A stretch of DNA of 12,790 nt from Rubrivivax sp. (GTDB taxonomy: Bacteria; Pseudomonadota; Gammaproteobacteria; Burkholderiales; Burkholderiaceae): positions 1 through 12,790 of the forward strand of contig SEEY01000042.1 of assembly GCA_004211235.1 (NCBI GenBank). The letters run 5' to 3'. Shown here piece by piece: positions 302 through 8,779 of this stretch. The notes beneath the pieces are model-generated. The model had not been told where the DNA came from and did no database searches. It saw nothing but the letters and a program-made list of their open reading frames with translations. Every line of letters starts with the position of its first letter. Positions within the stretch are counted from its first letter, which is position 1. A program made the translations under genes and the position numbers.

Positions 302-976
302 ATGAAGCGCCTGTCCTTCCTCCTCGCCTCGATGGCGATCGCCGCGTCCGCGCATGCCGGATTCGTCAGCTACAGCTTCGGCGTCTTGCCGCAAGAAGAC
401 ACGCCCATCTCGCAGACCGGTTCGCTGAGCCTGTTCGACAGCTCGCTCGGGACGCTCACCGACGTCCAGCTGCTGATGCGCGGCGAAGGCACGGTCAGGT
501 TCCAGCTGCGCCATTCCGGCGGCGGCGTCGGAATCTCCCTGGACTCGATCACAGACATCTTTGCCACCAGTTCGCTGGCGGCATTGAACGGCCTCTTCAG
601 TGCCACGGACCCCGTGCTCACGATGGGTCAGAACCTGATCGTCAACCTTGACCCGGGCGAGGAGTTTGACCAGTCGTACAGCGTCGGTGACCTGCACGGC
701 GTGGCTGGGCTGTCTGCAATCCTGAGCAGCTTCTCGGTGGCCGGTGGCGGCGCGTTCGACCTGACCTGCACTTCGAAGACGCAGCTCATCGTTCGCGAGT
801 ACGGCGGCGACAGGGACAAGACCCGCATCGACGACGCGACCACTGCCGCCTGCGGCGCGGAAATCACCTACAGCTACGACCGTCCGGCCGTGGGGAACTC
901 GGTGCCCGAACCGGCGACGCTGGCACTGACCGCGCTTGCGCTGCTGGGCATTTCGGGCGTCCGCCGCCGGCGCTGA
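302..976 (+). CDS. PEP-CTERM sorting-domain protein, probably choice-of-anchor E type
   Basis: This 224-residue exported protein is probably anchored or released at the cell surface by an exosortase. It has a signal peptide ending in the AHA-G region (residues 1-19). A beta-rich middle includes a phrase like LFDSSLGTLTDVQL (residues 44-57), which resembles the choice-of-anchor E domain. The classic C-terminal signal is VPEP at 201-204, a hydrophobic segment at 205-220 and four arginines at 221-224. Two cysteines (156 and 184) could pair after export. The ATG at 302 follows AAGGA at 293-297 and gives the signal peptide directly. The gene stands alone behind the sigma-54 promoter and converges on the chemotaxis gene. 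The PEP-CTERM call is firm; the biological role is unknown, and links to exopolysaccharide or floc formation come from the family only. Confidence 0.88.
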   Translation: MKRLSFLLASMAIAASAHAGFVSYSFGVLPQEDTPISQTGSLSLFDSSLGTLTDVQLLMRGEGTVRFQLRHSGGGVGISLDSITDIFATSSLAALNGLFSATDPVLTMGQNLIVNLDPGEEFDQSYSVGDLHGVAGLSAILSSFSVAGGGAFDLTCTSKTQLIVREYGGDRDKTRIDDATTAACGAEITYSYDRPAVGNSVPEPATLALTALALLGISGVRRRR

Positions 977-1073: not shown

Positions 1074-2615
1074 TCAGGTCTTGAACGTCGACACGAGCTT
1101 CACCAGCTCGCTGGCCTGATGCTTCAGGCTTTCCGCCGCGGCGGCGCTTTCTTCCACCAGCGCGGCGTTCTGCTGGGTCGCCTCGTCCATCTGGGCGATG
1201 GCCAGGCCCACCTGGCTGACGCCGGTGCTCTGCTCGCGGCTGGCCGAGCTGATCTCGCGCACGATCATCGCCACGCGGCCGATGGCGGTGACGACCTGGC
1301 CCATCGTCTCGCCGGCCCGGTTGACCAGCGTGGCGCCCTGTTCGACACGTTCGACGCTGTCGCCGATCAATGACTTGATCTCCTTCGCCGCATCGGCGCT
1401 GCGCTGGGCGAGCATGCGCACCTCGCTGGCGACGACGGCGAAGCCGCGCCCCTGCTCGCCGGCCCGCGCCGCTTCGACGGCGGCGTTCAGCGCCAGGATG
1501 TTCGTCTGGAAGGCGATGGCGTCGATGGTGCCGATGATGTCGCTGATCTTGCGCGAGCTTTCCTCGATGCCGCGCATGCGCTGCACCGCCTCGCTGACGA
1601 CCTCGCCGCCCTTGCGCGCCACCTCGCTGGCGTCATGCGCAAGCTGGTCGGCTTCGCCGGCGTTGTCGGCGTTGAGCTTGACGGTGGCGGACACCTGCTC
1701 CATCGCCGCCGCGGTCTGCTGGATGGCGCTGGCCTGCTGCTCGGTGCGGGCCGACAGATCGTTGCTGCCCAGCGAGATTTCCGAGCTGGCCGTGGCCACG
1801 CCGTCGGCGTTGTTGCGCACGGAGCCCACCAGGTGCCGCAGCGACATCTGCATGTTGGCGAGCGCCTGCGTGAGCTGGGCGGTCTCGTCGCTGCCCACGC
1901 TGTGGATCTCGCGAGACAGGTCGCCCTGGCCGACTTCCTCGGCCTCATGAATGGCGATCCGCAGCGGCTTGACGACGGAGCGGGTGATCAGCAGTGCCGC
2001 TGCAATGCCGATGCTCAGGCAGATGGCGGACAGCACCAGCATCACCAGCTGCGTGCGGCGCGCGGCCTCGAGCACCAGCCTCGTCTCGTCGCGCACGCGC
2101 TCGCCTTCGTAGTCGGCCATGCGGCTGATCGTCCCGACGTAGGCGTCCGCCGCCGGGCGCATCTTGCCCTCGAGCGTCTGCAGTGCGGCCTCCGCCTCGC
2201 CGGCCTTGAGCTGGGCGAAGACCTGGTCGCGGATGTCGACATAGGTTTTGCGGGCCGCGGCGATGTCGGCCAGGTTGGCCTTGCCCTTGTCTGTATCGAC
2301 GACGTCGGCCAGGGACTTCTGCAGCTCGCTGATCTTGGCGCTGGTGGTCTTGATGATGGGCGCGAAGAACTCCGCCACCGGCCCGGTGCCGCCGGCCCGC
2401 GACACGGCGTCGGTGCGGGTCACGTTGAGCTGGGTCTGGGTGCGCCAGTCCTGGGCCAGGTCCTGCTGCCGCTGCAGTTCGATGAGCAGGTCGATGTGCG
2501 GGCCGACCGTGGCCATCTGCCGGTAGCTCAGGCCCACCGCGACGACGAGCAGCAGCAGCACCAGGCCAAACCCCAGACCGAGCCGGGTACCGATGCGCAA
2601 GGATTGCATCTTCAT
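1074..2615 (-). CDS. Methyl-accepting chemotaxis protein
   Basis: This transmembrane chemoreceptor would signal through CheA/CheW. With the start chosen here it has 513 residues. A first membrane segment lies at about 13-31, a periplasmic, mostly helical sensor region (four-helix-bundle-like) at about 33-188, and a second membrane segment at about 190-211. A HAMP linker runs to about 263. A long cytoplasmic coiled coil follows, with the highly conserved hairpin tip ([20 protein letters not shown], about 368-387). The C-terminus ends STFKT and lacks a CheR-docking pentapeptide. An ATG 12 bp further upstream is in frame, but the GGAGG there sits 5 bp before the ATG at 2615, so 2615 is the better start. 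No other chemotaxis genes are in the window and the ligand cannot be predicted. It is preceded on its own strand by the metK terminator, so it probably has its own promoter. Confidence 0.93.
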
Positions 2616-2702
2616 CTCTGCCTCCATTTGTTGTGTCCGGGCAGGGCGACAAGCCGCTTACCGTGCCGGCGCGTTGACTCTACTCGTCGCGCGCACGCTG
2701 CG

Positions 2703-2737
2703 GCACAAGGAAGAACACCGCCTTGCTGGCGGTGTTC
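2703..2737 (-). terminator. Intrinsic terminator of metK
   Basis: Read on the minus strand, GAACACCGCC (2737-2728) and GGCGGTGTTC (2722-2713) form a perfect 10-bp stem with a 5-nt AGCAA loop, followed by TTCCTTGT. It lies 3' of the last metK-tail repeat and before the chemotaxis gene. It is the only hairpin in the window that combines a long perfect stem with a T-rich run. Confidence 0.8.
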
Positions 2738-2776
2738 GGTGGTTCGTGCGTCGAAGCGCGCTTTGGCTCGGCGGCC

Positions 2777-2815
2777 TTACAGGCCCGCTGCTGCACGCAG
2801 CGCAGCCGCCTTGTC
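2777..2815 (-). repeat. metK 3'-end repeat, distal copy ([12 protein letters not shown] plus stop)
   Basis: On the minus strand these 39 bases encode the same 12 residues and TAA stop as the real metK end, preceded by the codons for Arg-Thr. Against metK there are seven base differences, all at third positions and all synonymous. The open frame runs back to a GTG at 2836 (19 codons), without a clear ribosome binding site. The downstream stem seen in the other units is missing; the terminator follows instead. Confidence 0.9.
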
Positions 2816-2830
2816 GGTGCGTTGCTCTCC

Positions 2831-2855
2831 GTTCACATCGCTTCGCGATATGAAC
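2831..2855 (-). repeat. Hairpin in spacer 2 of the metK-tail repeats
   Basis: GTTCACATCGC (2831-2841) pairs with GCGATATGAAC (2845-2855). On the minus-strand RNA this is an 11-bp stem with one G-U pair and a GAA loop. It occupies the same place as the hairpin at 2949-2974, with compensating base changes in both the lower and upper stem. Confidence 0.75.
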
Positions 2856-2892
2856 TGCGCCCAGGCACCGAATCGCGCTTCGCGCGGCGGGC

Positions 2893-2931
2893 TTACAGCC
2901 CGGCCGCCGCCCGCAGGGCAGCGGCTTTATC
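2893..2931 (-). repeat. metK 3'-end repeat, proximal copy ([12 protein letters not shown] plus stop)
   Basis: This is a second 39-bp copy of the metK end, again preceded by Arg-Thr codons. It differs from metK at eight bases and from the distal copy at nine; every difference is a synonymous third-position change. Its frame is open back to an ATG at 2955, giving a possible 20-residue peptide, but that ATG lies inside the hairpin stem at 2949-2974 and has no clear ribosome binding site. GCACCGA (2865-2871) and TCGGTGC (2930-2936) flank the copy as an inverted repeat. Confidence 0.9.
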
Positions 2932-2948
2932 GGTGCGTCTGGTCTTCA

Positions 2949-2974
2949 CCCACATCCGCTCACGCGGATATGAG
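2949..2974 (-). repeat. Hairpin in spacer 1 of the metK-tail repeats
   Basis: CCCACATCCGC (2949-2959) pairs with GCGGATATGAG (2964-2974). On the minus-strand RNA this is 11 bp including two G-U pairs, closed by a GUGA tetraloop of the GNRA type. It is homologous in position and flanks to the hairpin at 2831-2855. Confidence 0.75.
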
Positions 2975-2982
2975 TTCCGCCC

Positions 2983-3059
2983 ACGTGTTGACCCGCGCCT
3001 CGCGCGGCGGCCTTTACAGGCCGGCTGCAGCCCGGAGGGCCGCAGCCTTGTCAACACGT
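2983..3059 (-). repeat. 10-bp inverted repeat enclosing the metK stop
   Basis: ACGTGTTGAC at 2983-2992 is the exact reverse complement of GTCAACACGT at 3050-3059, which codes for the Arg-Val-Asp before the last metK residues. The arms enclose the metK tail hairpin, a small GGCC-GGCC stem around the stop codon, and a CGCGC/GCGCG stem. The proximal extra copy has an equivalent enclosing stem of different sequence (2865-2871 with 2930-2936), which points to conserved folding. Confidence 0.7.
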
Positions 3060-4195
3060 TCCCACGTGAACTCGGGTTCTTCGCGGCCGAAGTGGCCGTA
3101 GGCCGCGGTCTTGGAGTAGATCGGGCGCAGCAGGTCGAGCATCTGGATGATGCCCTTGGGGCGCAGGTCGAAGTGCTCGTTGACGAGGCTGGCGATCTGC
3201 TCGTCGGGGATGACGCCGGTGCCTTCGGTGTAGACCGTCACGTTCATCGGCCGGGCCACGCCGATGGCGTAGGCGACCTGGATCTGGCACTGGCGCGCCA
3301 GGCCGGCGGCGACGACGTTCTTGGCCACGTAGCGCGCTGCATAGGCGGCCGAGCGGTCGACCTTGGACGGGTCCTTGCCGCTGAAGGCGCCACCGCCATG
3401 CGGGCAGGCGCCGCCGTAGGTGTCGACGATGATCTTGCGGCCGGTCAGGCCGCAGTCGCCCTGCGGGCCGCCGATGACGAAACGACCCGTCGGGTTGATC
3501 AGGTACTTCGTGTCGGCGGTCAGCCAGGCCTTGGGCAGCACGGGCTTGATGAGCTCTTCGCGGATGGCCTCGTAGAACTCGTCCGTCATGCGGTCGCCCA
3601 GGCTGTACTCGGGCGCATGCTGTGTGGACAGCACGACGGTGTCGATGCTGTGGGGCTTGCCGTCCACGTAGCGCATCGTCACCTGGCTCTTGGCGTCGGG
3701 GCGCAGGAAGGGAAGCCGGCCGTCCTTGCGCAGCTGGGCCTGGCGCTCCACCAGCCGGTGGGCGTAGTAGATGGGCGCGGGCATCAGCTCGGGCGTCTCG
3801 TCGCAGGCGTAGCCGAACATCAGGCCCTGGTCGCCGGCACCGGTGTTGAGGTGGTCGTCGGACGCATGGTCCACGCCCTGCGCGATGTCGTTGCTCTGCT
3901 TGTCGTAGGCCACGAGCACCGCGCAGCCCTTGTAGTCGATGCCGTACTCGGTGTTGTCGTAGCCGATGCGCTTGATGGTGTCGCGGGCGACCTGGATGTA
4001 GTCGACGTGGGCGTTCGTCGTGATCTCACCGGCCAGCACGACGAGGCCGGTGTTGCACAGCGTCTCGGCGGCCACGCGGCTGCGCGGGTCCTGCTCGAAG
4101 ATGGCGTCCAGGATGGCGTCCGAGATCTGGTCGGCCACCTTGTCGGGGTGTCCCTCGGAGACGGATTCGGACGTAAAGAGGAAATCGTTGGCCAC
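3014..4195 (-). CDS. metK: S-adenosylmethionine synthetase
   Basis: This cytoplasmic enzyme makes S-adenosylmethionine from methionine and ATP, and the methyl supply of the cell depends on it. The 393-residue product matches the usual betaproteobacterial length. Visible signatures are the N-terminal SEGHPDK ATP-site motif (13-19, with His16), GAGDQG (119-124) and the glycine-rich [19 protein letters not shown] segment. The GTG at 4195 is chosen because it gives the conserved start [11 protein letters not shown] and sits 7 bp after GGAG (4203-4206). A longer frame back to an ATG at 4294 would add 33 residues unlike the family. The gene diverges from the acyltransferase gene. Its 3' end is unusual: the last 12 codons are repeated twice more downstream with synonymous changes only, before the terminator at 2703-2737. 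Confidence 0.97.
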
Positions 4196-4324
4196 TTTTA
4201 AACTCCGGTTGCTTGGATGGCGGCGTCGCCGTTGCTCCAGGAGGTGCGGCGAACGCTTTAGCAGGATTTGTGAATCGCCCCGCAAGTTGTTCAATAACTC
4301 GGCGATGCGCGAAGTATAGGAAAC
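4196..4324. promoter_or_regulatory. Divergent promoter region between metK and the acyltransferase gene
   Basis: These 129 bp must hold the start signals of both genes. For the plus-strand gene a weak pair is visible (TTGTGA near 4269 and TTCAAT near 4291, spacing 16), with the ribosome binding site AGGA at 4318-4321. For metK I see the ribosome binding site at 4203-4206 but no convincing -10. A small CGGCGACGCCG palindrome lies in the metK leader (4219-4229). I do not recognise any SAM-binding riboswitch. Confidence 0.35.
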
Positions 4325-5200
4325 ATGGGTCTGCTCTTTCGCTGGTTATCCCGCCTCCCGCTGGCGCTATTGCACGCATTGGGCGCCATGCTGGGCTGGG
4401 TCGTGTATTTCGCGTCGGGCGTCTACCGGCGGCGTTTCAAGGCCAATGTGGCGCAGGCCGGCGTGGCCTGGCGCGACGCGCGCCCGGCCATCGCCGCGGC
4501 TGGGCGCATGGCCGCGGAATTGCCGTGGCTGTGGGTCGCCACCAAGGGACGGCCGCTCGGCGACAAGCTGCGCTGGGACGGCGGCGAATTGATCGCGGCG
4601 GCACTTGCGCAGAAGCGCGGCCTCGTCATGCTGACGCCGCACATGGGCTGCTTCGAGATCTGCGCGCAGGCGATTGCCGAGCGCTTCACATCGCCCGAGT
4701 CGCCCATCACCGTGCTCTACCGGCCGGCGCGTCAGGCGTCGCTGCGTGAGGCCATGGCCGGCTCGCGGGAGCGCCCGGGCCTGGCGACGGCGCCGGCGTC
4801 ACTGGCCGGTGTGCGTCAGATGATCCGCGCGCTGCGCAAGGGCGAGGTCATTGGCCTGCTGCCGGACCAGGTGCCGCCGGACGGCCTGGGCGTGTGGGCG
4901 CCGTTCTTCGGCCGGCCGGCCTACACCATGACGCTGGCGGCCCGCCTCGTGCAGCAGACGGGCGCGGCGCTGCTGCTGATCTGGGGCGAGCGTCTGCCGG
5001 GCGGCGAGGGCTTCGTCGTGCATGTGCTGCCGGCGCCGGACATTCCTCAAGCCGCCTCGAACGAGGAAGCGGCCGCGACCATCAATGCGGCCATGGAAAG
5101 TGTGATCCGCCGCGCGCCGGGCCAATACCTGTGGGGCTACCACCGCTATAAGGAACCGCGCGGGCTGGACATCGGCGCCGCGCCGCCGCCTCCCGGCTAA
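4325..5200 (+). CDS. lpxL: Lipid A biosynthesis (late) acyltransferase, LpxL/HtrB family
   Basis: This inner-membrane enzyme transfers an acyl chain from acyl-ACP to the lipid A precursor. The 291-residue protein has an N-terminal hydrophobic anchor (about 8-31) and the catalytic H-x4-E motif in TPHMGCFE (His106, Glu111). It also has YRPAR (132-136) and a substrate-site block [19 protein letters not shown] (178-196). The start at 4325 follows AGGA closely. In Burkholderiales an acyltransferase of this family commonly sits beside metK and dapF, which supports the call. Whether it is the LpxL-type or another late acyltransferase (LpxM/LpxP) cannot be told from sequence reading alone. Its TAA overlaps the stop of the convergent PEP-CTERM gene by 4 bp. 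A GCCTGC-GCC-GCAGGC hairpin (5205-5219) just beyond lacks a T-tract. Confidence 0.9.
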
Positions 5201-6072
5201 GGCTGCCTGCGCCGCAGGCCCACCAGGCCCACCAGGCCGAGCGTGAACAACAGCGCCGCACCGGGCTCGGGCACGGCCGTCGTCAGCAGGGCCGGGTCGC
5301 CGCCGCTGATGCCCGTCAGGCGCATCGTGTGGAAGGCATCGGCCACGACGTCGGTGGTGTTGTAGGTCATCTGCACGCCGGCGCTCAGCCGGCTGATGAG
5401 CAAGAAGCTCGCGCCGGTGTCGACCGAGACGCTGACCGAGAAGTCGCCGCTGAAGGGCCGCGGGTCGTTGAACAGGCCGGTGCCGCTGTGCTCGCTGTAG
5501 CCGAAGTCGATCAGGCCGGTTTCGAAGGACGGGTCCTTTCCGCTGTACAGGGCTGCGGAGCCGAACGCGGTGGCACGGGCGCTGCTGAGCAGGCCGTCGA
5601 CGTGGAAGTCGAAGCGGTAGGTGGCGCTGCCCGGGCCGAAATAGGTGTAGGTCTGGCGCGTGCTGGCTTCGGCCGTGGCAGCGTAGAGGTCGATGCCGAC
5701 CATCGGCTGGCGCGGGTCGGCGATCACGTAGGCCGGCTCGTTGTCGGCCCGGGCATAGGCGCCGAGCACCGGCCGGGCCAGCGCGCCCTCGAACGCGGCG
5801 CTGGCGTGGTATTCCACCTCGCCGCCCAGGGTGTAGGGCGCGTTGTCGGCATCGCGCAGCGGCTGGCCGAGGTAGTCGACCTGCGCGGCCATGGCGCTGG
5901 TCACGCTCTGCACCGGTGTGCCGTTGAGCGTCAGCGGAAAGTGCGGGCAGGTGCTGCAGCCGATCTGCGAGTCGCCGCGCGCATAGCCGTTGGCGCTGGC
6001 GGAACTCACGGCCTGGGCGGTGTTGCCCAGCAGGCCGAGGGCAAGGATGAGGAATGGAAAGCGCAATTGCAT
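5197..6072 (-). CDS. PEP-CTERM sorting-domain protein with a CSTC motif
   Basis: This 291-residue exported protein has a signal peptide (1-21, ending TAQA-V), a long middle region I do not recognise, and a C-terminal sorting signal: VPEP at 267-270, a hydrophobic segment at 271-286 and three arginines at 287-289. Just inside the mature N-terminus is Cys39-Ser-Thr-Cys42, a CxxC arrangement and the only cysteines in the protein. An in-frame ATG at 6114 exists, but the one at 6072 gives the signal peptide at once and is preceded by AGGGAGA. The gene lies 106 bp downstream of the LAL-type regulator on the same strand, so it may be the last gene of the regulator operon or have its own promoter. 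I found no sigma-54 match before it, unlike the other PEP-CTERM gene. Its function is unknown. Confidence 0.87.
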   Translation of the reverse strand: MQLRFPFLILALGLLGNTAQAVSSASANGYARGDSQIGCSTCPHFPLTLNGTPVQSVTSAMAAQVDYLGQPLRDADNAPYTLGGEVEYHASAAFEGALARPVLGAYARADNEPAYVIADPRQPMVGIDLYAATAEASTRQTYTYFGPGSATYRFDFHVDGLLSSARATAFGSAALYSGKDPSFETGLIDFGYSEHSGTGLFNDPRPFSGDFSVSVSVDTGASFLLISRLSAGVQMTYNTTDVVADAFHTMRLTGISGGDPALLTTAVPEPGAALLFTLGLVGLVGLRRRQP

Positions 6073-6130
6073 GAGGAGTCTCCCTGGCAGGGCGGGCCCG
6101 GTGCGGGCTGCCACGTTCCAACGCTAAGCG

Positions 6131-6151
6131 CCGGGCCCGGGCGACGTCGCC
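6131..6151. promoter_or_regulatory. Two adjoining GC palindromes upstream of the second PEP-CTERM gene
   Basis: CCGGGCCCGG (6131-6140) is directly followed by GGCGACGTCGCC (6140-6151); both are perfect palindromes, sharing one G. They sit in the 106-bp gap between the LAL regulator stop and the PEP-CTERM start, a natural place for an operator or an attenuating hairpin. In sequence this rich in G+C, short palindromes also arise by chance. Confidence 0.25.
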
Positions 6152-6178
6152 GCGCCGCTACGCGGATTTCGCCGCCGA

Positions 6179-8779
6179 CTACCCAGATTTCGCCCGCCGG
6201 ATGGCGTCCTGCCGCGTCTTCACCCCCAGCTTGAGGAAGAGGGCGGCGACATGGTGCTCCACCGTGCGTTCGGAGCGGTGCAGCGCGGCCGCGATGGCGC
6301 GGTTGCTGTGGCCCTGGACGAGCAGGTCCAGCACGGCGCGCTCGCGGGCAGTCAGGCCGAGCGGATCCTGCCGGGCATGACCGTAGCGGCCGCGCCCCAC
6401 GGCCCCAGCGCCGAGCGCTCGCAGGCGGCCCCGCGCGAACTTCGCGGCCAGCTCGGCGCCCAGGCCCTGCAGCATCTTGAGCGCCTCCGTCACGGCCTGT
6501 GCATCGCCGCCGAGCAGTGCCAGTGCCTGTTGATAGGGGCAGCCCAGATCGCACCAGGCGCGGGCGGCGGCGCGGTGGTCGCCCGCCAGCTCCCGCGCAC
6601 AGGCCGCGGGCGCGTCGGCCGGCGCGGGCCGGGGCTGGCCCAGCCGCGCCAGCCACACCAGCAGCTGCGCGCGTCGCCATGGCCCCAGGCGCGCGGCCTT
6701 CCCATCCAGCGCGACCTCGGCCAGCCTTCGCGCCTGCGCCGTGTCGCCCGACAGCGCCGCCACCTCCACCTGCTGCACCTCCACCGACATGAACCAGGGC
6801 CGCAGCGCCAGCCGGCGCCGACCGTCGGCCAGCTGCTGCCAGTAAGCGAGCGCCTGCGGCTGCTGCCGGCGGGCCGCCTGCAGCGCGAGCAGGTGCTCGA
6901 CCTGCTCGCGCTGCAGCGCATTCAGGTCGGAGCGCACCTGCAGCTGCCGCAGCCGCGCCTCGCCCGCCGGCCAGTCGCCGCGGGCGATCTCGCCGCAGGC
7001 CTGCCGCACGCGCAACGGAACGGCGAACAGGTCCAGGTCGCGCGCCTCGCAGAAGGCCAGGCCGGCCGCGCACAGGCGGTCCAGCGCCTCGTACTGCGCG
7101 GCGACCAGCGCCGCCGAGGCGAGATTCGTCCAGGCGCGCGCGGCCTGCTCCTCCTGGCCGGTGGCGCAGGCCTGGGCGAGCGCGGCGTGCAGCTCGGCCA
7201 CACCCGGTGCCTCGTCGGAGCCGCCGATGCGGGCCGACGCCAGCGTGATGCGCGCGGCCAGCTCGCCTGTGCGGTCGTCGAGCCGCGAGAACAGCGCCAG
7301 CGCCTTTGCCGCGCCGGCCAGCGCCAGGCCGCTGTCGTCATCCAGCAGATGCAGTTGCGCGCGGCTGGCCAGCGCGCGGGCGAGGGCCGGGCTGTCCGGG
7401 GCGTGCTCGCCGAGCAGCGCCACCGCGGCCTCGGCATGCACGAGGCCGGCGGCAGCCCGCCCGCGTGTCCACTCGACACGCGCCAGCAGACTCAGGTGCT
7501 CGGCTCGCGCCAGCGGCCTCGCGCCGGTTTCGGCTTCGGCGAGCGCCAGCGCCCCGGCCTGTGCGGCCTCGTCGATCTGGCCGGTCAGCAGGCATTCCAG
7601 CGCGCGGGCGCGGGCCAGGCGTTCGACCTGCGCCGGCGGCAGCTGCGCCCGGTGGCTCAAGGCCAGTCCGAGCAGGGCGGCGGCCTGCCGGTGCGCGCCG
7701 CCAGCCGCCGCCTGCTCGGCCGCACGCGGTGCCAGCCGGGCCACGGCGTGGGCCAGGCCGGCATGCTCGGCGTGATGCACCAGCCGCGCCGGCGCCGCAC
7801 CGCGGTCGCCGAGCGCGTCGAACACGGCGGCATGCAGCGCTGGGGCGCGCGGCCCCAGCGCCTCCAGCACCGTCAGCCGGGTCAGCTCATGGGCAAAGCG
7901 CAGGCCGTCGCCACCCGGCTGCAGCAGGTCGGACGTGACGACCTCGGCCAATGCCGCGGGGTCCAGGCCGCAGACATGGGCCAGCACCGCGGTTTCCAGC
8001 GGCCCGGGCGACACGCTCGCAACGTTGAGCAGCTCGCGGGCCGGTGCCGACAGCCGCGCCACGCGCGCCAGCATTGCGTCGCGCACGCTGGCCGGCAGCC
8101 CGTCGGCGGGCGGTGCGTCCAGCAGCTCGGTGACGAAGAACGGGTTGCCGCCGCTGGCCTCGAACACGCCCGCCGACGGCCGCCCGGCGCGCGCCGCCAG
8201 CGTCGCCACGGCGGCCTGGCTCAGCGGGGCGAGCTTGATCGACCGGGCGCGCTGGCCGGCCAGCCCGGCCAGCACGGCGCGCAGCGGGTGCGCGGGCCCA
8301 AGCTCGCCGCCGCGCCAGGTGAGGCACAGCAGCACCCGGGTGCCGGCGATGCGGCGGGACAGGAAACGCAACAGGTCCAGCGTGGCGCCGTCGGCCCAGT
8401 GCAGGTCTTCAAACACCCAGACGCACGGCCGGCGGCTGCGGCGCGCCAGTGCCAACAGGGCGGCGAACAGCTCGGCCGCCGGGGCGGCGCGCCGCAGCAG
8501 CGAGGCGATGTCGGCGGGCAGCCGGGGCAGCATGTCGAGCAAGGGCCCCAGCGGCAGCGGCGCGATCAGCGGCTCGCAGGCGCCCCACGCCCAGTCGATG
8601 CCCGTGCCGATCCCGGCGCTTTCCCGCTCGGCCGTGCGCAGCAGACGCGTCTTGCCCAGGCCGGCATCGCCTCCGAGCAGCACGCACCGCCCTTCGCCCT
8701 GCGCCAGCGCGGCCAGGTCGGCGCGCAGGCCGGCGAGGGCCGTGTCGCGTTCCAGCAGGGGGAGCTCCGGCCGGGCCAT
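6179..8779 (-). CDS. LuxR-family transcriptional regulator, large ATP-binding (LAL/MalT-like) type
   Basis: This is probably an ATP-dependent DNA-binding regulator of the STAND class. The 866-residue protein starts with a Walker A motif GGDAGLGKT (36-44) and has a Walker B-like WVFEDLHWAD (121-130). A long alanine/leucine-rich helical middle has the look of TPR-like repeats. It ends in a LuxR helix-turn-helix (about 807-866: LTARERAVLDLLVQG, then SNRAIAAALHRSERTVEHHV). The ATG at 8779 is chosen because the protein then opens directly into the AAA-type domain; the frame stays open upstream but only across the kinase gene in another frame. A weak AGGGGA lies about 10 bp before it. It follows the kinase stop by 14 bp, so the three regulatory genes are likely cotranscribed. 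The inducer is unknown; the nearest likely target is the PEP-CTERM gene downstream. Confidence 0.9.
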   Translation of the reverse strand: MARPELPLLERDTALAGLRADLAALAQGEGRCVLLGGDAGLGKTRLLRTAERESAGIGTGIDWAWGACEPLIAPLPLGPLLDMLPRLPADIASLLRRAAPAAELFAALLALARRSRRPCVWVFEDLHWADGATLDLLRFLSRRIAGTRVLLCLTWRGGELGPAHPLRAVLAGLAGQRARSIKLAPLSQAAVATLAARAGRPSAGVFEASGGNPFFVTELLDAPPADGLPASVRDAMLARVARLSAPARELLNVASVSPGPLETAVLAHVCGLDPAALAEVVTSDLLQPGGDGLRFAHELTRLTVLEALGPRAPALHAAVFDALGDRGAAPARLVHHAEHAGLAHAVARLAPRAAEQAAAGGAHRQAAALLGLALSHRAQLPPAQVERLARARALECLLTGQIDEAAQAGALALAEAETGARPLARAEHLSLLARVEWTRGRAAAGLVHAEAAVALLGEHAPDSPALARALASRAQLHLLDDDSGLALAGAAKALALFSRLDDRTGELAARITLASARIGGSDEAPGVAELHAALAQACATGQEEQAARAWTNLASAALVAAQYEALDRLCAAGLAFCEARDLDLFAVPLRVRQACGEIARGDWPAGEARLRQLQVRSDLNALQREQVEHLLALQAARRQQPQALAYWQQLADGRRRLALRPWFMSVEVQQVEVAALSGDTAQARRLAEVALDGKAARLGPWRRAQLLVWLARLGQPRPAPADAPAACARELAGDHRAAARAWCDLGCPYQQALALLGGDAQAVTEALKMLQGLGAELAAKFARGRLRALGAGAVGRGRYGHARQDPLGLTARERAVLDLLVQGHSNRAIAAALHRSERTVEHHVAALFLKLGVKTRQDAIRRAKSG

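What the first reader, a model, noticed from the sequence alone, without database searches (positions are those of the whole stretch)
2777..3052. Two extra copies of the metK C-terminal coding end, diverged only at synonymous sites
The last 12 codons plus stop of metK occur three times in tandem on the minus strand (3014-3052, 2893-2931, 2777-2815). All encode [12 protein letters not shown] and TAA. Pairwise there are 8, 7 and 9 base differences, and every one is a synonymous third-position change. DNA downstream of a stop codon should not keep protein-level conservation by drift. Either each copy was a real metK end in some genome and was displaced by tail replacement (repeated recombination with related metK genes, or insertion of a mobile unit that re-caps the gene end, as integrative elements do at other gene 3' ends), or the copies are translated. 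The two extra copies share Arg-Thr before the Asp, where this metK has Arg-Val, which fits an origin from other metK alleles. This could be a scar of an undescribed element targeting the metK 3' end.
Basis: partly seen in the sequence, partly recalled or inferred. Interest (0 to 1): 0.8.

Follow-up and report, generated by a model that had tools for sequence, protein, structure and literature searches.

The report
Swappable gene ends in hairpin cassettes
Behind a vital bacterial gene lie what look like its discarded former endings, each in a small DNA hairpin cassette; related bacteria show that such a cassette can come in, give the gene a new ending and leave the old one downstream, and similar ones sit at other genes.

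Summary
It is one case of a wider phenomenon. Each full copy belongs to a ~110-140 bp cassette: the last ~13 codons and stop of metK fold with downstream DNA into a cloverleaf (strong covariation), followed by a conserved hairpin core. 11 of 80 metK loci picked by MetK similarity alone have extra ends; so do 74 of 187 when loci chosen for the structure are added. Copies differ from their own native end mostly synonymously (234 v 64 codons). Sister genomes show the event: in G007 and G446 a new cap of ~118-120 bp sits between gene body and old cap, and the displaced cap matches the relatives' native end, 36 of 36 bases at best. On a tree of 46 metK bodies, cap type changes at least 18 times (35 classified). 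The core also lies at ends of acs, argF, ftsW, glmS, proB, aceE and beside tRNAs, often with copies of that gene's own end. Tail replacement is supported; a metK-only element is not. The mover is unknown.

The parts
3014..4195 (-). metK (S-adenosylmethionine synthetase), 393 codons + stop, GTG start
   Evidence: ORF (listed there with an earlier TTG start); query for 80 metK relatives at 85-94% identity
3014..3061 (-). current metK cap, [15 protein letters not shown] (copy 1)
2949..3061 (-). unit 1: cap + cloverleaf + core hairpin. Outer stem 3050-3059 with 2983-2992; cap hairpin 3023-3047; stop-codon hairpin 3009-3022; third hairpin about 2993-3006; core hairpin 2949-2975
   Evidence: fold; model R1 match 94.8 bits (the unit is in the model, so it matches by construction)
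2893..2940 (-). extra metK end, copy 2 ([14 protein letters not shown])
2832..2940 (-). unit 2: outer stem about 2930-2937 with 2865-2871, core hairpin 2832-2854
   Evidence: model R1 match 109.9 bits (also in the model); pairs in alignment A1
2777..2824 (-). extra metK end, copy 3 ([15 protein letters not shown]); I recognise no core hairpin after it
   Evidence: R1 match 63.5 bits at 2714-2824 (not in the model)
2713..2737 (-). intrinsic-terminator-like hairpin; the cassettes lie between the metK stop and this site, so probably in the metK 3' untranslated region
   Evidence: consensus scan (1 found, 0.7 expected by shuffles, so weak)

Best explanation
A cassette is about 110-140 bp: the last ~13 codons + stop of the gene, a cloverleaf whose outer stem begins where the gene homology begins, and a conserved hairpin core (...GGCGnAGG-CTCATATCGCnnnGCGATGTGA...). 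Shown: the conserved structure; protein-level constraint in the history of the copies; presence of one extra cassette with displacement of the old cap between sister genomes; the same core at other genes with those genes' ends. Inferred: that the cassette moves as a discrete unit (perhaps as folded single-stranded DNA) rather than only by homologous recombination between arrays; that it often comes from another lineage; that the inverted arm arises and is kept matched by fold-back copying (template switching) and/or selection. The mobilising enzyme is unknown. Any benefit to the host (for example mRNA 3'-end stability) is untested.
For: 1) Structure: 12 units, 35 pairs, 18 pairs with changes on both sides, 55 such cells against a shuffled mean of 17.5, 0 of 500 shuffles. 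2) Constraint: 54 of 56 extra metK copies compared with their own native end (2 of L088 dropped): differences by codon position 55/43/266, 234 synonymous v 64 non-synonymous codons; a random change is synonymous 33% of the time. glmS, ftsW and argF copies together: 60 synonymous v 6 non-synonymous codons; glmS includes a Ser TCA/AGC exchange (sequence); argF has 6 first-position differences but only 2 non-synonymous codons. 3) Sister genomes: G235, G411 and G423 end EKTDKAATLRAAAGL*; G007 ends [15 protein letters not shown] and carries the relatives' end one cassette downstream (G411 0 and G423 1 of 36 differences, following 90 nt 0.96 and 0.99; G235 1 of 33; the new cap 10-11 differences). 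On the metK-body tree G007 is sister to G411 (99/97) with G423 outside (100/92), so gain of the new cap is the shorter history. L333 (G446) v L332 (G468), 97.3% in the metK body: displaced end 36 of 36 identical, new cap 5 differences. Beside the cap mismatches are not denser than elsewhere in these two cases (L333/L332 1,1,2,1,0 and L124/L315 1,1,1,5,5 per 50 nt going upstream). 4) 11 distinct extra units match another genome's native unit at the cut-offs used; 10 of the 11 are closer to it than to their own cap in the coding end. 5) Cap type changes at least 18 times among 35 classified of 46 rows. 6) 44 of 54 copies are closer to some other native end than to their own.
Against: In L338 v L234 (5 mismatches in the 50 nt next to the cap, then 1,2,1,1) and L330 v L339 (5, then 1,1,2) differences are denser beside the cap, as a co-imported tract would give. 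Copies are nearer to their own native end (mean 6.7 differences) than random native ends are to each other (9.7), so part of them stem from, or were converted by, the same lineage. The 44 of 54 count sets one own end against 131 others and is biased upward. 8 of 74 arrays have a cap within 1 difference of an own extra unit, including L333 and L338, so intra-array copying or conversion happens too; L343 unit 1 has its own cap's coding end unchanged. acs copies are much less constrained (28 v 33 codons). Homologous recombination with a donor whose array already has the new order would give the same product. The cap classes rest on regular expressions, and 11 of 46 rows stayed unclassified. No mobile form and no enzyme is shown.
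Confidence: 0.7

Rival explanations
1. Homologous recombination only: arrays of related species exchange units by RecA-dependent recombination or gene conversion in the shared gene ends; there is no dedicated mobile unit. Cap switching is then allele exchange in a repeat-rich 3' region.
For: Arrays with the order new cap - old cap exist as possible donors (L338); mismatches are denser beside the cap in L338 v L234 and L330 v L339; cap and distal unit identical in L333 and L338; copies partly closer to own lineage.
Against: No denser tract beside the cap in L333 v L332 or L124 v L315; it does not explain the first formation of such arrays, nor the same core at unrelated genes with gene-specific inverted arms.
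Confidence: 0.35
2. Local tandem duplication by slippage, with the secondary structure (not the protein) holding the sequence of the copies.
For: Near-identical tandem units exist (L046 with three extra units; proB array with 89-bp steps in L153). In the cap hairpin third positions pair with third positions.
Against: In G007 and G446 the new cap differs from the old one by 10-11 and 5 bases while the displaced copy differs by 0-1 from the sister's native end. In the cap hairpin the three third-position pairs change on both sides while first/second-position pairs hardly vary (only 3 of those 12 units are extra copies). glmS, ftsW and argF copies keep the protein by synonymous changes.
Confidence: 0.15
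3. The downstream copies are translated (small ORFs), and that keeps their amino acids.
For: 71 of 98 extra metK copies have an in-frame ATG/GTG/TTG after the last in-frame stop, against 77 of 196 in the other two frames; in some units it is a GTG of the core hairpin (sequences).
Against: Phases relative to metK are mixed (36/39/23); some copies are decaying (stop inside in L242, frame content lost in L273); sister comparisons already explain the constraint. Ribosome-binding sites were not tested.
Confidence: 0.05
4. Scars of a conventional integrative element (ICE, phage) using metK as attachment site.
For: Re-capping of a gene 3' end with a synonymous copy is what such elements do (established knowledge).
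Against: No match to the array in plasmids and phages, no exact match of the core in viral contigs, one weak plasmid match (E 6e-3, half the query, on lpdA) for an aceE stretch; 88 of 98 spacings are 109-148 bp; the same core occurs at several genes.
Confidence: 0.05

Closest known systems
REP/BIME/REPIN elements with RAYT transposases
   Same: Short palindromic hairpins, some just after stop codons, sometimes in arrays; PMC12306157 (passages read) discusses REPs within 15 nt of a stop codon
   Different: Low copy (usually 0-10 strand matches per genome, G209 31+33), against >100 copies per genome in the abstract of PMC2817692 (listing); carries the end of the host gene; 6 of 14 core-bearing genomes tested have no Y1 transposase match
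Integrative elements that re-cap gene 3' ends (established knowledge)
   Same: Native end replaced by a largely synonymous copy, old end displaced downstream
   Different: ~120 bp, too short for an integrase; serial displacement; several different genes with one shared core
Integron cassette arrays (attC)
   Same: Array of hairpin cassettes, the first of which is the one in use; new ones enter next to the fixed part (analogy)
   Different: Core pattern absent (up to 3 mismatches) from 9 stretches around integron integrases; IntI not associated with the core: 20 of 30 v 12 of 22, p=0.40
Bacterial MITEs / Rickettsia palindromic elements
   Same: <200 bp, structured, can lie inside coding sequence in frame (PMC2229807, passages read)
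   Different: As described there, one element sequence is inserted into different genes; here the arms and the coding part are those of the host gene
Quasipalindrome-associated template switching
   Same: Known way to make inverted-repeat arms match (search listing with abstract starts only, e.g. PMC7202029)
   Different: A mutation process; it would explain arm matching, not cassette gain

Membership tests
REP/RAYT system | High copy number of a fixed palindrome | tested here: not met
   130 of 399 family genomes have the core at up to 2 mismatches, usually with 1-10 strand matches; G209 31+33
REP/RAYT system | Companion Y1 transposase | tested here: not met
   PF01797 has no match at E<=1e-3 in G209, G300, G283, G108, G288, G117, which carry the core; 8 of the 14 core-bearing genomes of that call do have one
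Integron cassette | attC site with integron integrase in the host | tested here: not met
   IntI over cut-off in only 12 of 23 array genomes, no association (20 of 30 v 12 of 22), core not found in 9 integrase stretches
Integrative element re-capping a gene | Native gene end replaced, old end displaced | tested here: met
   G007 v G235/G411/G423 and L333 v L332
Integrative element re-capping a gene | Integrase gene in the element | tested here: not met
   88 of 98 spacings are 109-148 bp, the longest 238; too short for such a gene
MITE | Fixed terminal inverted repeats and target-site duplication | tested here: inconclusive
   Inverted arms are gene-specific: stems >=8 ending 9-11 nt before the core in 44 of 103 sites v 18.4 in the control, arm starting [CGA]AA in 34 of 44; direct copies flank the core but their length varies
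Known RNA family (Rfam 15) | Gathering score reached | tested here: not met
   6 sub-threshold matches in 2400-4500, the highest 22.6 bits against a threshold of 60
Retroelement | Reverse transcriptase in hosts | tested here: not met
   PF00078 without a match in 12 of 23 array genomes incl. G007, G446, G209; an enzyme of another genome or an unknown type is not excluded

The most novel reading that the evidence does not exclude
A new kind of mobile unit: a gene-end cassette. It has no protein, is addressed to its target by carrying the target gene's own last codons, replaces the working end of a housekeeping gene on arrival, and stores earlier ends downstream in an ordered array from which they may be reused, at metK, acs, argF, ftsW, glmS and others, moved as folded DNA by an unknown host or mobile factor.
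Probability: 0.35. Interest if true: 0.92.

Novelty: new variant of a known kind. Interest (0 to 1): 0.78.

Why it matters
If right, the C-terminal ends of essential genes in a large bacterial family are exchanged by ~120 bp cassettes, and the discarded ends form a readable, ordered record of past events. That makes the origin of palindromic intergenic repeats directly testable and warns that short downstream homology, terminator annotation and gene-end phylogenies can be misread. It would also point to an unknown way of moving small hairpin DNA.

Tried and rejected
Known structured RNA: no Rfam family reached threshold. Plasmid or phage origin: no match to the array; the core has 0 exact matches in viral contigs; an aceE-core stretch gave one weak plasmid match on an lpdA gene, covering half the query. 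RAYT mobiliser: rejected as a general requirement. Integron integrase: looked promising (12 of 23 array genomes over cut-off) but is about as common without the core (20 of 30 v 12 of 22, p=0.40; 18 further genomes were left out of this test). Reverse transcriptase: no match in 12 of 23. A wider range for the core: 5 of 274 genomes of the class match, one of them G007 itself, reversed-pattern control in 2 genomes, so it is mainly a trait of one family. A first event search returned 0 pairs because of my offset error and was repeated correctly. One script stopped on a missing key (its mismatch profiles had printed) and the rest was run. Papers: 9 searches were answered (the last with 0 hits); nothing in their listings described gene-end cassettes. 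PMC3733652 and PMC12306157 were searched for Acidovorax, Comamonad, Burkholderi and Variovorax with 0 occurrences; PMC2817692 names Variovorax once, about resistance transfer, not repeats. No paper was read whole, and the library lacks most subscription papers, so absence of a description is not proven.

Full report
Observation. The minus strand of the window carries metK (3014-4195) followed by two more copies of its last 12 codons and stop. The three copies differ pairwise at 8, 7 and 9 bases, all third positions, no amino-acid change. The array spans 2769-3049 with spacings of 121 and 116 and lies between the metK stop and a terminator-like hairpin at 2713-2737.

Anatomy. The single strand folds far better than shuffles (z -7.8). 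Each full unit is a cloverleaf: an outer stem whose 5' arm is the codons before and at Asp (ACGTGTTGAC/GTCAACACGT in unit 1, GCACCGA/TCGGTGC in unit 2), a hairpin made by the Ala-rich codons, a hairpin with the stop codon in its loop, a third hairpin, and then a conserved hairpin (core). The outer stem differs on both sides between units, in step with Val in the gene against Thr in the copies. In 12 units (two from the window, ten from nine other loci), 18 of 35 pairs show changes on both sides, 55 cells against 17.5 in shuffles, 0 of 500.

Relatives. Among 80 metK loci found only by MetK similarity, 11 have at least one extra end (a stricter first pass found 4). A covariance model hits 107 of 399 family genomes at E<=1e-5, 12 of 26 in the genus of G007 and 42 of 47 in that of G010 at E<=1e-3. 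In 187 distinct metK loci, most of the added ones picked because of such hits, 113 have no extra end and 58, 11, 3, 1, 1 have one to five. A shuffle control gives 0.45 false copies per pass over 147 loci, where 56 copies in 47 loci were seen.

Protein-level history of the copies. Over 11 codons, 54 copies differ from their own native end at 55 first, 43 second and 266 third positions, 234 synonymous against 64 non-synonymous codons, random expectation 33% synonymous. Several copies carry variants that are native elsewhere: KAQALR, KAALLK, ending GLK. 44 of 54 are closer to some other genome's native end than to their own, a count that favours the larger pool; own distances (mean 6.7) are below those of random native pairs (9.7), so not every copy is foreign.

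The event itself. G235 (L247), G411 (L315) and G423 (L316) end in EKTDKAATLRAAAGL*. G007 (L081/L124) ends in [15 protein letters not shown], followed about 118 bp later by the relatives' end and then by units matching their next ones. The displaced end differs from the relatives' native end at 0-1 bases, the new cap at 10-11. The metK-body tree puts G007 with G411 (99/97) inside a clade with G423 (100/92), so gain of the new cap is the shorter history. L333 against L332 (97.3% in the body) repeats this...CTGGGA, then a new cap and its cassette (~120 bp), then the old end unchanged in 36 of 36 bases. In these two cases mismatches beside the cap are no denser than elsewhere; in L338 v L234 and L330 v L339 they are, which fits import of a short tract. 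11 distinct extra units match another genome's native unit at the cut-offs used, and 10 of them are closer to it in the coding end than to their own cap (L338 only 5 against 6; L343 the reverse, 4 against 0). Cap class changes at least 18 times over 35 classified of 46 rows, 13 if only the linker class is scored.

Not only metK. The core pattern occurs in 130 of 399 family genomes (reversed-pattern control in 1) and in 5 of 274 genomes of the class including G007 itself (control in 2). Off-metK model matches sit at ends of acs, aceE, glmS and pstB and of a gene that I read as cysH-like; proB, ftsW, argF, acs, glmS, aceE and pstB were named by NCBIfam in these or sister loci. In the fetched loci extra ends occur at acs 18 of 28, ftsW 7 of 8, argF 5 of 6, glmS 2 of 3, pstB 1 of 2, proB 0 of 4, aceE 0 of 4. 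glmS, ftsW and argF copies: 60 synonymous against 6 non-synonymous codons; acs: 28 against 33. At L163 the 3' half of a tRNA is copied after the core, at L144 a 5' part before it (tRNAs read by eye, ARAGORN not run), and at L099 a gene start is copied. At aceE, several relatives without the core have a plain short spacer, while L372-L375 have an arm complementary to their own codons, changing with them from species to species; in L383, L384 and L386 arm and codons do not match well, as if the coding end had changed after the arm was made. Over 103 distinct core sites, 44 have a perfect stem of 8 or more ending 9-11 nt before the core (control 18.4), and 34 of these 44 arms start with C, G or A followed by AA.

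How it most likely works. Shown: structure, constraint, displacement. Inferred: a cassette with its own gene end is gained next to the gene body. The recurring border (AA before the arm; CCA-AA after the core) suggests a recognised or microhomology-guided join, and the inverted arms suggest fold-back copying, a known mutational route (listing). Y1 transposase, integron integrase and reverse transcriptase are each without a match in several carriers (integrase judged at its cut-off). Recombination or conversion within and between arrays also occurs and may be the whole story of spread.

Verdict. Real and widespread. The copies are best read as discarded gene ends. I rate it a new variant of known kinds (palindromic mini-elements plus gene-end re-capping), with a fair chance that it is a class of its own.

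Noticed in passing
L163 (G209), minus strand near 693: tRNA (read by eye as Phe) followed by the core and then a second copy of its 3' half; suggests the same re-capping at tRNA genes
   Followed up: partly
L144 and L203: A 5' part of a Ser-like tRNA stands before the core and the whole tRNA after it (L144 clear; in L203 a Ser-like tRNA follows the core); read by eye
   Followed up: no
L099 around 1501-1601: Core next to two copies of a gene start reading MTAKLIDGVAL on the opposite strand (folD-like from memory), so the unit can sit at gene starts
   Followed up: no
L108 around 1501-1610: cysH-like gene (from memory) whose ECGLHVK end is repeated in frame with the core-like stretch translated between the copies
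   Followed up: no
G209: Genome with 31+33 strand matches of the core, several with a fixed short hairpin CAACCGAAGGTTG instead of a gene end; a possible free form of the element
   Followed up: partly
L153 (G362), 1500-1767: proB end followed by four core matches at 89-bp steps, three of them with identical core
   Followed up: partly
70 + 23 family genomes: Integron integrase genes are common in this family (over the cut-off in 38 of 70, and 12 of 23), with or without the core
   Followed up: yes
L006, L080: metK contigs of burkholderial type in records titled Akkermansia muciniphila and Mycobacteriaceae, probably mis-binned
   Followed up: no
window 302-976 (+) and 5197-6114 (-): Two proteins without Pfam match at 1e-5 ending in a VPEP...RRR motif that looks like a PEP-CTERM sorting signal (recalled motif)
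   Followed up: no
window 6147-6199: 21-bp tandem repeat, 2.5 copies
   Followed up: no
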